Shown here one piece after another: positions 16,006-19,569 of a stretch of DNA of 64,000 nt. The position numbers and the translations under genes were made by a program. Where the stretch lies: NCBI RefSeq assembly GCF_000341285.1, contig NW_005178446.1:101107-165106 (forward strand). Direction: 5' to 3'. The stretch is from Galdieria sulphuraria (Eukaryota; Rhodophyta; Bangiophyceae; Galdieriales; Galdieriaceae). How positions within the stretch are numbered: the first letter of the stretch is position 1; every line of letters begins with the position of its first letter. The notes beneath the pieces are model-generated. The model ran no database searches. It was not told where the DNA came from and was given only the letters and a program-made list of their open reading frames with translations.

Positions 16006-19000
16006 ATGATCCAGAAGCCTATTCCTTCGCTTTCTTGTCAACTCGCTTTCAGTTGTCTTTGTGTAAAATTAGAGACCAGCAAAACTTTGCCAAATGTTCT
16101 TTCAGTTGGTCTAGCTCGCTTGTCGAGGGGTCCGTTCTGCTTTAGGATTAAAAACCAACGTGTACAGAAGTCTAGTCGACAACCACACAAATTTCTTTGT
16201 ATAAACTCTGCTATCTCTTCCCAGAGATCTGTCCTGACACCTAAACTGATACTGCCACAGCTTCGAAAACTTTTGAAAGAATTGGGTCTCCAGGCTTTGG
16301 TAGTTGCCAATACTGATCCTCATGTGAGCTTGCATATTTTGTTCTGTTTCCACTTAAAGTTTTCTAGCTCTCTGAATATCCTCCAGCACATTTTAATAGG
16401 AGAGAATTTGTTTCAGGCTTTACAGGATCGGCTGGCACTGCCTTGGTTACAGAGAAAAGTGCCATTCTATGGACAGATGGGCGATATTTTCTTCTAGCGG
16501 AGAAAGAACTGGATGAAAACTGGAAACTTATGAAAGGTATTGTAGTTTGGGTCAATTTCAGTCCTCACGTGAATTTTTAGTTGGTATTGCAGGTTTCCCG
16601 ACATTAGAAGAGTTTCTATCAGAAAACCTTCCAAAACAGTCAGTCGTTGGTATAGATCCCTATTCCCATTCGGTGTCGTTTGTTGAGAATTTGAGTAAAA
16701 AGTTATCCATTAAGGATATTTATATTCGTCTTTTGGATACAAATCCAGTTGATTTGTTGTGGAATGTTGGAAGACCCTCGCTACCAACCGATTCTATTCG
16801 GATACATCCGTTAGAGAACGCAGGTCAAAGCTGTTTTGAAAAGTTGGAAGATATTCGAGTAAGAATGCAAGAGTTGAATGTGGATATGTTACTTGTGTCA
16901 CTTTTAGATGAAGTACGTAGTATATTGCATATGTCTTATTTCCAACATTTCTTTAGATTGCTTGGGTTTTAAATCTTCGTGGCTCAGATATACCGCATTG
17001 TCCTGTATTTTTAGCCTACTTCTTAGTTGGATTCAATCAGAACGTTCTCTATGTGAATCGTGAAAAGGTATTCGTGCAATTTTTATTTGATGTTTAGTTT
17101 ATTTAGTGTTCAACAGATTCCAAGTTCGGTTGAGAGTTATTTGTATGAATGCAATATTGATATAAAACCATATGAAGCCATTTTGCCGGACTTGAAGAAA
17201 TTTTCACAAGATAATAGGAAAATATGGTACGACCCACTAAGCACCAACGCAGCGTTAGGTTTTGCATGTCAACCAGGTGGCTTTCCTCAATCGACACCGA
17301 TTTCGTTGATGAAGGTTTGTTCTTGTTTACAGCATGAAATAAATGATCTTATACAAACTTAGGCTGTGAAAAATGATGCTGAAATTCGCGGAATGAGAGA
17401 AGCACATATTAGAGATGGAGTTGCTTTGGTTCATTTTTTGAACTGGCTTGAAACGGAAGGAATTTCTAATGGAGTTAGTGAGTTTGAAGCCGCAGAAAAG
17501 CTTTTAGAGTAAGCTATGTGTTTGAATCCATTTTTGAAATTCCTATATGCATGCTTTGAACTACTTGCATAGATTTCGGTCGAGGCATGCAGAATTTGTC
17601 ACCGAAAGTTTTCCAACGATATGTGGTTCTGGTCCCAATGGCGCGATCATTCATTATCGTCCGATGCCGAGTGATGCAAGGCCTTTGAGTACGAAGGAGT
17701 TGATATTGTTAGATTCTGGTGGTCAGTATATGGATGGAACTACGGATGTAACGAGAACATTTCATTTTGGAACACCAAGTGAAAAGTAATTGATTGCCAT
17801 TTTTGTATTCAGTTTATTGATGCTCTTATTAGACAACGTGAATGCTTTACTCGAGTATTACAGGGCCACATATCTTTGGATACAGCAATCTTTCCCAAAG
17901 GCACTTTGGGATGCTTGTTGGATTCTTATGCACGTCGGAAACTTTGGGAATATGGACTCGATTATCGCCATGGAACAGGTACTCTAGACATCTTAATGAT
18001 GGAAGGAATTGAAGTTTATATTTTATATCAATCAGGACACGGAATAGGAGCAGCTCTAAATGTACATGAGGGTCCTCATTCCATCAGTCCTCGCATGGGA
18101 AATAACGTTTACTTGCGGCCTGGAATGTTTGTATCTAATGAGCCTGGATTCTATGAAGATGGTGAATTTGGGATAAGAATAGAGAATATTCTTCTGGTGG
18201 TCGAGAAGGATACCCCGTTTCGGTTTGTTTCGTTTGAGAATTGAATTGAAAAGTTTGTCTAACGTAACCTTTTTCAAGTTTTGGTGATATTCCTTTCTAT
18301 GGATTTGAAGCTTTCACAATAGTTCCCATTCAACAGAAAATGATTAAAATCGAATTACTTGAAAAGCACGAAATTGACTGGATTGATCGATATCATTCTC
18401 GCGTGTGGAAGATTCTAAACCCCAGAGTAGAAGATGCTAATGTGAAAGAATGGTATGTTGCTTTTTTTGATATATTTGAGTGTTGAAGCTTTGTGAAAGG
18501 TTGTGGAAAAGTACACGGCCTATCTTATCTACAAGTGATAAGAGTTTTCCAGAACAGCAATTTTCCACTTCACGTCGAAGCTTCCTTGGTTTCTTCTGTG
18601 GTCTTCTTGTATCGTCTCTGTTACCGAAGAAGAAACAGCTACAGGCCGTTGTAAGAATAGTCTACTCTTTTTGTACTTTTATAATTATCGATCGATAGGA
18701 AATGGATAATGAGTCTTTATTCATATCGAAACAAGAGAATAAGAGACCAAAGATTGATCCAAAGATATCTGAGCCAGATATTACTTCGAAATGCTTTTTG
18801 TAAGTATTTAGAGTGATTGAGCTATTCAGCAGCCGACGTAACTGGTTATGTAGTGATTTAAAAGTGGAAAATCGTGGAATGAAGAGAGTTGTCATTGGAT
18901 TATATGGAGGTATGTGTTGTATTTGTTGAGGATTTCACTCAACAAAAGTACAATTTTTGAATAGGAGTTGCTCCAAAGACTTCTCAGTTGTTTGCTGATT

Positions 19001-19569
19001 TATGCGACTGCAATCGCTCATTTAGTTATTTGTAAGATTTGAGTTGTGCATGTAGAATTCTTACAGACTCTTATAAGTCGGTCCTCTTATGATTTGTAAC
19101 AATAGGGGTTCTGAAGTTTTTCGAGTAATCGAAGGAATGAATATTCAGATAGGACGAAAGTTTTCCTTAGGTAAGCTTTCAACATTCGATTGACTTTTGA
19201 GTAATTTACTTTATTGTTGATAGAAGAAGTTGGTGACTATAAAACAGCAAATTATGATTTCTTGGAAGATTGTTGTCAATTTCGACACAATATGGAAGGC
19301 CTTGTTTCCATGGTTCGGACGAAGCCTTCGAAGGATCTTGATTACCGTTTCTTTATAAGGTATGTATACATGCATACAAATTCTAAGTATACTCAAGTCC
19401 ATATAGTACTGCTCCAGCCCCTTATTTGGACGACAAATATGTTACGTTTGGTAAAGTTATGGAGGGCATGGATTGGGTTCATGAAATAGAAAGACTGAAT
19501 ACTAAAAAGCCAAGCAATCAGCCCATTTTGAAAGTGAAAGTGGTAGCTTGTGGACAACAAAAATTGTGA
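16006..19569 (+). CDS. Aminopeptidase P continuous by splicing with lumenal-type cyclophilin
   Basis: Many exons with introns of 44-57 nt. The first part is an M24B Xaa-Pro aminopeptidase with a possible organelle leader. It shows EYPPAHFNRREFVSGFTGSAGT, LLDSGGQYMDGTTDVTRT, YRHGTG..GHGIG and NEPGFYEDGEFGIRIEN, so the metal-binding Asp, His and Glu residues are present. It ends as the family does (NVKEW joined to LWKSTRPI). Where the enzyme should stop, the frame stays open and reads STSRRSFLGFFCGLLVSSL, a twin-Arg thylakoid-type signal. A divergent cyclophilin fold follows (RVVIGLYGGVAPKTSQLF, EVFRVIEGMNIQIG, NMEGLVSMVRT, FGKVMEGMDWV). No in-frame ATG lies between the two domains. The last aminopeptidase intron, if kept, gives a stop at 18481-18483. 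It is one fused gene, or two products made by alternative splicing or start. Confidence 0.75.

What the first reader, a model, noticed from the sequence alone, without database searches (positions are those of the whole stretch)
16006..19569. Aminopeptidase P reads without a stop into a thylakoid-type cyclophilin
The last aminopeptidase exon, joined by a clean 47-nt intron, gives the normal family end (VKEWLWKSTRPI). The frame stays open through a twin-Arg hydrophobic stretch (STSRRSFLGFFCGLLVSSL) into a divergent cyclophilin. No in-frame ATG lies between them. If the intron is kept, a TGA at 18481-18483 ends the aminopeptidase instead. Either this is a new fusion in which a Tat-like signal sits inside the chain, or intron retention versus splicing, or an internal start, makes two products that share an exon.
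Basis: partly seen in the sequence, partly recalled or inferred. Interest (0 to 1): 0.75.

Follow-up and report, generated by a model that had tools for sequence, protein, structure and literature searches.

The report
Red-algal peptidase–cyclophilin fusion gene
In this hot-spring red alga one gene encodes a chloroplast-type peptidase joined, through a built-in export-like signal, to a protein-folding helper, and the same fused arrangement is found in distantly related red algae, so it is most likely real and old rather than a misreading of the sequence.

Summary
Seventeen exons (16006-19569, +) give one open frame of 906 aa: transit-peptide-like N-terminus, aminopeptidase P (APP), disordered linker with SRRSFLGFFCGLLVSSLL, cyclophilin. 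One correction: the retained-intron stop is TGA 18484-18486.

An identical 906-aa protein is in NCBI (G. sulphuraria), named only as an aminopeptidase. The same order occurs in G. partita, G. phlegrea, Cyanidium, Cyanidiococcus and Compsopogon, another class. Cyanidium and Cyanidiococcus genomes have only 44 and 36 introns (PMC9812998), so splicing errors hardly explain them. The twin-Arg is present in 5 of 8 fusion rows. Fused cyclophilins form one clade (100/99, 22 rows) with two stand-alone ones that carry twin-Arg signals. Trees do not show a single origin of the fusion.

Likely mechanism (inferred): APP's transit peptide brings one precursor into the stroma; the internal signal sends the cyclophilin into the thylakoid lumen while APP stays in the stroma. 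Intron retention making APP alone remains possible: this intron has the weakest acceptor of 16. No transcript, localisation or cleavage data were seen.

The parts
16006..19569 (+). Fusion gene, 17 exons: 16006-16323, 16368-16536, 16593-16912, 16957-17067, 17117-17314, 17363-17508, 17573-17785, 17833-17978, 18036-18222, 18279-18452, 18500-18650, 18699-18799, 18854-18909, 18965-19031, 19106-19170, 19224-19359, 19407-19569
   Evidence: open frame, 906 aa; identical 906-aa database protein P0001
16006..16233 (+). Transit-peptide-like N-terminus, aa 1-76: 1 acidic, 12 basic, 14 Ser/Thr in the first 75 residues; disordered in the model
   Evidence: targeting is inferred
16234..18524 (+). Aminopeptidase P (Creatinase_N, Creatinase_N_2, Peptidase_M24, Peptidase_M24_C), aa 77-669
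   Evidence: D468, D479, H542, E576, E590 invariant in 11 of 11 aligned rows; top fold match human X-prolyl aminopeptidase 3ctz
18453..18499 (+). Intron 10, 47 nt, before the junction exon; if retained, stop TGA at 18484-18486
   Evidence: donor score 9.5 (third best of 16), acceptor score -1.6 (lowest of 16)
18500..18650 (+). Junction exon 11: last APP codons, linker and the twin-Arg signal
18573..18647 (+). Internal Tat-like signal: RR 18573-18578, hydrophobic stretch 18579-18623, KKK and LQA ending at 18647
   Evidence: comparison with fused relatives
18780..19566 (+). Cyclophilin-type domain, aa 739-906
   Evidence: PF00160 at aa 746-902, E 3.7e-24; active-site map

Best explanation
This is a genuine, old fusion gene of red algae. 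One mRNA encodes one precursor: transit peptide, aminopeptidase P, flexible linker, lumen-targeting signal (Tat type in Galdieria and Compsopogon), cyclophilin. The transit peptide of the aminopeptidase brings the whole chain into the chloroplast stroma. There the internal signal takes over: the cyclophilin part crosses the thylakoid membrane into the lumen and the aminopeptidase remains on the stromal side. Cleavage after the signal, or by a stromal protease in the linker, then separates the two. The cyclophilin thus uses the aminopeptidase as its chloroplast ticket in place of a transit peptide of its own. Shown: the open frame, the domain order, its recurrence in other species, the sequence features of the signal. 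Inferred: a single mRNA, import, the Tat route, the topology and the cleavage.
For: One 906-codon frame with all domains. Identical database protein P0001, and the same order in P0002 G. partita (908 aa), P0004 G. phlegrea, P0024 Cyanidium (985 aa), P0025 Cyanidiococcus (1066 aa), P0031 (1067 aa, no species given) and P0007 Compsopogon (830 aa); P0003 (unnamed JGI) ends inside the cyclophilin. That is 8 of the 120 proteins listed out of 2775 hits; the other 2655 were not seen. The Cyanidium genome has 44 introns (46 in another passage) and the Cyanidiococcus genome 36, and the paper's gene models were finished with RNA-seq, Iso-Seq and manual inspection (PMC9812998, passages); the name CDCA01G0325 of P0024 has that paper's form, while I did not verify that P0025 comes from it. 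Twin-Arg in 5 of 8 fusion rows (P0001-P0004, P0007). N-termini of the six rows that are complete there are poor in acidic residues: 1, 1, 0, 4, 0, 3 of 75 in P0001, P0002, P0004, P0024, P0025, P0031 (P0003 and P0007 start inside APP). The model is disordered at 672-735 between two folded parts. Stand-alone relatives P0121 and P0122 have SRR signals and join 7 fused cyclophilins in one clade, 100/99. An internal Tat signal has precedent in actinobacterial Rieske proteins (PMC5449189, passages).
Against: No transcript of this locus was seen. The twin-Arg is absent in 3 of 8 rows (P0024, P0025, P0031). Only 4 of 8 rows (P0002, P0004, P0024, P0025) reach a Kyte-Doolittle mean of 1.6 over 17 residues at the signal; G. 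sulphuraria does not. The -3 residue before the presumed cleavage site is Leu in G. sulphuraria, G. partita and G. phlegrea, not the usual small residue; AxA appears in Compsopogon, P0025 and P0031 (read by eye). Tat signals ordinarily have free N-termini (PMC5449189). The P0004 model leaves the cyclophilin part-way and runs into the next gene. Gracilaria, Gracilariopsis and Agarophyton entries are not fused. On the APP tree the fusion label needs 3 changes and is one side of a branch in 0% of 200 bootstrap trees; on the cyclophilin tree 2 changes and 36%; one origin with losses is not ruled out, but not shown; Compsopogon is a long branch in the APP tree.
Confidence: 0.62

Rival explanations
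1. Two products share the gene: full splicing gives the fusion, and retention of intron 10 (or 11) gives an aminopeptidase without cyclophilin. The cell then sets the ratio of stromal APP to lumenal cyclophilin by splicing.
For: Intron 10 has the lowest-scoring acceptor of 16 (-1.6) beside a strong donor (9.5); retention ends APP at VKEWYVAFFDIFEC, close to its normal end. Precedent: plant SODcp-RPL32, a fusion that yields two plastid proteins by alternative splicing (PMC8429499, passages). P0026 from MMETSP is an APP that ends soon after a twin-Arg hydrophobic stretch and has no cyclophilin.
Against: 12 of 16 introns of this gene have the in-frame stop inside them if retained, so a stop in intron 10 is not special. 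Cyanidium and Cyanidiococcus keep the fusion in genomes with 44 and 36 introns (PMC9812998). The APP family end WLWKSTRPI is completed only after the intron.
Confidence: 0.2
2. The fused protein is not cleaved. The signal stays as a membrane anchor, so one molecule spans the thylakoid membrane with APP in the stroma and cyclophilin in the lumen.
For: Rieske proteins of bacteria and plant thylakoids keep an uncleaved Tat signal as anchor (PMC7317946, passage). Leu at -3 in three Galdieria rows weakens the cleavage site. P0026 has an APP with only a hydrophobic end.
Against: AxA ends in Compsopogon, P0025 and P0031; modest hydrophobicity of the stretch.
Confidence: 0.2
3. A separate cyclophilin is made from an internal promoter or an internal ribosome start inside the last APP exons.
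For: About 14.5% of Cyanidium genes lie on polycistronic transcripts (PMC9812998, passage). A Met lies near the signal in 3 of 8 fusion rows: P0002 (SSMKENN), P0007 (GMTRRAF), P0031 (DSMSRLG). M624 (KMI) is shared by 5 of 8 rows (P0001-P0004, P0007), though within APP family sequence.
Against: No Met near the signal is common to all rows; in G. sulphuraria the only choices are M624 inside APP and M713 after the signal. A product starting at the signal would have no chloroplast transit peptide.
Confidence: 0.07
4. Gene-model or assembly artefact: two neighbouring genes read together because a stop or start was lost in sequencing.
For: The G. phlegrea model P0004 does run on into a third gene, so model errors happen in this group.
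Against: The same joined frame is found in several species and two classes, in intron-rich and intron-poor genomes (PMC9812998). I could not read those other genomes' DNA myself.
Confidence: 0.03

Closest known systems
Eukaryotic three-domain aminopeptidase P (M24B; human XPNPEP1 type; plant aminopeptidase P2)
   Same: Four Pfam domains, invariant presumed metal ligands, top fold match 3ctz E 3.4e-67; named land-plant rows 43-49% identical over the APP part
   Different: Carries a signal and a cyclophilin after the normal family end
Stand-alone twin-Arg cyclophilins P0121 and P0122 (unnamed Logan contigs)
   Same: Same clade 100/99 among 22 rows, SRR signal, same changes Q111R, W121Y, H126Y
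   Different: Not joined to APP; A101 is kept there and is V in the fused rows; species unknown
Thylakoid-lumen cyclophilins of plants (PnsL5/CYP20-2, CYP28, CYP37, CYP38)
   Same: Cyclophilin fold; 7f9o_d of the barley PSI-NDH supercomplex, presumably its PnsL5 (entry 7f9o stands under that name), is the first cyclophilin among the 50 fold matches shown of 713, rank 49. Lumen residence of the plant proteins: PMC8346976 (passages)
   Different: Orthology to any one of them was not tested; they are separate genes
SODcp-RPL32 fusion genes of Malpighiales
   Same: A plastid protein gets its transit peptide by fusion to an existing plastid-targeted enzyme gene (PMC8429499, passages)
   Different: There alternative splicing gives the two plastid proteins; here one frame includes a second, lumen-type signal
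Actinobacterial Rieske proteins with an internal Tat signal
   Same: Tat signal inside the chain (PMC5449189, passages)
   Different: There the preceding part is Sec-inserted helices; here it is an enzyme of about 600 residues

Membership tests
Aminopeptidase P (M24B) | Creatinase_N, Creatinase_N_2, M24 and M24_C domains in order | tested here: met
   each over its curated cut-off
Aminopeptidase P (M24B) | Five metal ligands (D, D, H, E, E) | tested here: met
   D468, D479, H542, E576, E590 invariant in 11 of 11 rows; their role is recalled from the human enzyme
Aminopeptidase P (M24B) | Removes an N-terminal residue before proline | not testable with these tools
   No assay
Cyclophilin-type PPIase | PF00160 domain over cut-off | tested here: met
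   86.2 bits, cut-off 21.7
Cyclophilin-type PPIase | Canonical catalytic and cyclosporin-site residues (CypA R55, F60, M61, Q63, F113, W121, L122, H126; numbering recalled) | tested here: not met
   R55, Q63, F113, L122 kept; F60 to M, M61 to N, A101 to V, N102 to R, Q111 to R, W121 to Y, H126 to Y. It has the domain; activity may be low or altered
Tat substrate | (S/T)RRxFLK-like motif followed by a moderately hydrophobic stretch (consensus recalled) | tested here: met
   SRRSFLGFFCGLLVSSLL in the window; RR in 5 of 8 fusion rows, absent in 3; hydrophobic mean of 1.6 reached at the signal in 4 of 8 rows, not in this one
Tat substrate | Signal at the N-terminus of the protein (or just after a transit peptide) | tested here: not met
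   RR at aa 686-687 of 906
Tat substrate | Export depends on Tat | not testable with these tools
   Needs import assays
Thylakoid processing peptidase substrate | Small residues at -3 and -1 (recalled) | tested here: inconclusive
   LQA in G. sulphuraria; AxA in Compsopogon, P0025, P0031 (read by eye)
Chloroplast-targeted protein | N-terminal transit peptide | tested here: inconclusive
   1 acidic, 12 basic, 14 Ser/Thr in the first 75 residues; disordered in the model. No predictor or localisation available
Shared-transit-peptide fusion with alternative splicing (SODcp-RPL32 kind) | Two splice products from one gene | not testable with these tools
   No RNA data at hand

The most novel reading that the evidence does not exclude
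An internal twin-Arg signal, lying behind a folded 600-residue stromal enzyme on the same chain, works as a thylakoid targeting signal, so one nuclear gene supplies two chloroplast compartments from a single precursor, and this arrangement has lasted since before the split of Cyanidiophyceae from other red algae.
Probability: 0.35. Interest if true: 0.8.

Novelty: new variant of a known kind. Interest (0 to 1): 0.6.

Why it matters
Nuclear genes for lumen proteins normally carry a transit peptide plus a lumen signal at the N-terminus (recalled). Here the transit part appears to have been replaced by a whole enzyme, and the arrangement recurs in lineages that parted long ago. If the internal signal works in place, it would show that the plastid Tat route accepts a signal with a large domain in front of it, which in vitro thylakoid import can test directly. 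It also warns annotators: the NCBI entry is named as an aminopeptidase only and the cyclophilin goes unmentioned.

Tried and rejected
Assembly or frame artefact: rejected because of recurrence in several species. Internal start: disfavoured, since no Met near the signal is common to the 8 rows. Searching with the cyclophilin half of P0001 gave 4 proteins among 707 candidates: P0001, P0002, P0004 and the unnamed, Galdieria-like P0003; its words come from Galdieria alone, so it says nothing against wider spread. The profile search for stand-alone cyclophilins scored the 7995 candidates with most shared words and gave 110 hits; I read 8, of which P0121 and P0122 carry twin-Arg signals and the other 6 look like general cyclophilins. 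An ortholog in C. merolae was not seen among the 120 rows listed. Trees: a single origin of the fusion is neither ruled out nor shown. Papers: no report of this fusion was noticed in the listings (0 papers; 12 listed of 46; 12 of 23; 15 of 1502; 10 of 16; 7 of 8), nor in the passages; the library holds only open-licence PMC papers. Whether this genome has a second aminopeptidase P gene stayed open because the genome search did not complete.

Full report
What is there. I assembled the exons by hand and by script. Seventeen exons between 16006 and 19569 on the + strand, with 16 GT-AG introns of 44-74 nt, give one open frame of 906 amino acids. Pfam finds Creatinase_N 85-201, Creatinase_N_2 223-379, Peptidase_M24 382-596, Peptidase_M24_C 608-669 and Pro_isomerase 746-902 in this one chain, each over its cut-off. 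The one error is the retained-intron stop, which is TGA 18484-18486.

It is unlikely to be an accident of this assembly. A protein search returned 2775 hits, of which 120 were listed and their C-terminal parts looked at. Eight of these 120 show APP followed by a signal-like segment and at least the start of the cyclophilin: P0001 (G. sulphuraria, identical, annotated only as aminopeptidase), P0002 (G. partita), P0003 (unnamed JGI, ends within the cyclophilin), P0004 (G. phlegrea, whose model leaves the cyclophilin part-way for the next gene), P0007 (Compsopogon caeruleus), P0024 (Cyanidium caldarium), P0025 (Cyanidiococcus yangmingshanensis) and P0031 (no species given). Compsopogon belongs to class Compsopogonophyceae. 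P0007 has no contig in the listing, which suggests a transcriptome entry; that is an inference. The Cyanidium and Cyanidiococcus genomes have 44 (46 in another passage) and 36 introns in all, and that paper's gene models were finished with RNA-seq, Iso-Seq and manual inspection (PMC9812998, passages), so a fused model there is close to a plain uninterrupted frame. The name of P0024 has the paper's form; I did not verify the origin of P0025, and I could not read the DNA of these genomes.

The junction. In the Galdieria rows and Compsopogon the segment reads S/T-R-R-[SA]-F followed by a moderately hydrophobic stretch and basic residues, as in Tat signals (consensus recalled). In Cyanidium, Cyanidiococcus and P0031 a hydrophobic stretch remains but the twin-Arg is absent. 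So RR is present in 5 of 8 rows. A Kyte-Doolittle mean of 1.6 over 17 residues is reached at the signal in 4 of 8 rows (P0002, P0004, P0024, P0025), not in G. sulphuraria. The end of the signal is AxA in Compsopogon, P0025 and P0031 and LxA in G. sulphuraria, G. partita and G. phlegrea (by eye). Identity of G. sulphuraria to P0002, P0003 and P0004 is 20/27, 17/28 and 11/28 in the signal against 7/15, 6/13 and 5/15 in the linker before it; APP against P0002 is 513/592 and the cyclophilin 147/167.

The two enzymes. The residues that bind the two metal ions in aminopeptidase P (recalled from the human enzyme) are invariant in 11 of 11 aligned rows, and the model's top structural match is human X-prolyl aminopeptidase, 3ctz. 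The cyclophilin keeps R55, Q63, F113 and L122 of cyclophilin A but has changed F60, M61, A101, N102, Q111, W121 and H126 (numbering recalled). The stand-alone cyclophilins P0121 and P0122, which carry SRR signals, share Q111R, W121Y and H126Y and also differ at F60 and M61; they keep A101. They form one clade with 7 fused ones, 100/99, in a tree of 22 rows. The first cyclophilin among the 50 fold matches shown of 713 is 7f9o_d of the barley PSI-NDH supercomplex, rank 49. Activity is therefore plausible for APP and uncertain for the cyclophilin. The predicted model (11 sequences, mean pLDDT 73.2, pTM 0.67) is below pLDDT 50 at 1-75 (residue 6 excepted) and 672-735, and also in shorter stretches of both domains (538-563 in part, 805-828, 840-845, 857-862).

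How it most likely works. The N-terminus has the make-up of a chloroplast transit peptide (1 acidic, 12 basic, 14 Ser/Thr in 75). The unfused APPs P0008, P0010 and P0083 (Arabidopsis) have 2, 1 and 1 acidic residues in the same stretch, so this feature goes with the APP and not with the fusion. A nuclear-encoded lumen protein needs entry to the stroma first and a second signal after that. In this gene the only candidate that I see for the first is in front of APP and the only one for the second is in front of the cyclophilin. So I infer one precursor, imported once, whose rear part is then sent into the lumen. Internal Tat signals are known in bacterial Rieske proteins (PMC5449189, passages), and fusion to a plastid enzyme as a source of a transit peptide is known in SODcp-RPL32 (PMC8429499, passages). 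Import, Tat use, topology and cleavage have not been shown.

Results against this reading. The twin-Arg is missing in three rows. Tat signals ordinarily have free N-termini. Intron 10 has the lowest-scoring acceptor of the gene's 16, so an APP-only product by retention is possible. Entries of Gracilaria, Gracilariopsis and Agarophyton have APP without the fusion. The trees do not show a single origin of the fusion: 3 changes on the APP tree with 0% of 200 bootstrap trees needing only 1, and 2 changes on the cyclophilin tree with 36%; one origin with later losses is not ruled out in either, and Compsopogon is a long branch in the APP tree. Met codons lie near the signal in P0002, P0007 and P0031, so an internal start is not excluded everywhere. 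One MMETSP protein, P0026, has APP, a Ser/Pro-rich linker and a TRR hydrophobic end but no cyclophilin; it may be a half-lost fusion, a splice form, or unrelated.

Verdict. It is a new variant of a known kind (fusion genes of plastid proteins), with an unusual element, the internal lumen-type signal.

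Noticed in passing
window 19593-21540 (+): The next gene appears to start with ATG at 19593, 23 nt after the fusion's stop, with a signal-peptide-like start (MKYFFVIILLYFLQFVAALQ, read by eye). The G. phlegrea model P0004 runs the fusion into what looks like this gene's ortholog. Pfam shows no domain for that part at E 0.05.
   Followed up: partly
P0026: MMETSP aminopeptidase P of 908 aa, 13 members in its cluster, ending in TRRELFFIALAGIWLAILGFG...ESVAQLQ with no cyclophilin: perhaps a remnant or a splice form of the same fusion.
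   Followed up: partly
window 18453-18499: Intron 10 combines the third-best donor with the lowest-scoring acceptor of the gene's 16 introns, a natural place to look for regulated retention.
   Followed up: partly
own genome G000 contigs C2:294461-294975 and C63:3574-4088: Two cyclophilin copies with equal open-frame lengths and equal stop counts lie on different contigs, one near a contig start; possibly a duplicate.
   Followed up: no
window 14115-15743 (-): Divergent neighbour, a single open frame of 542 aa that looks by eye like a TBC-type Rab GTPase-activating protein; not tested.
   Followed up: no
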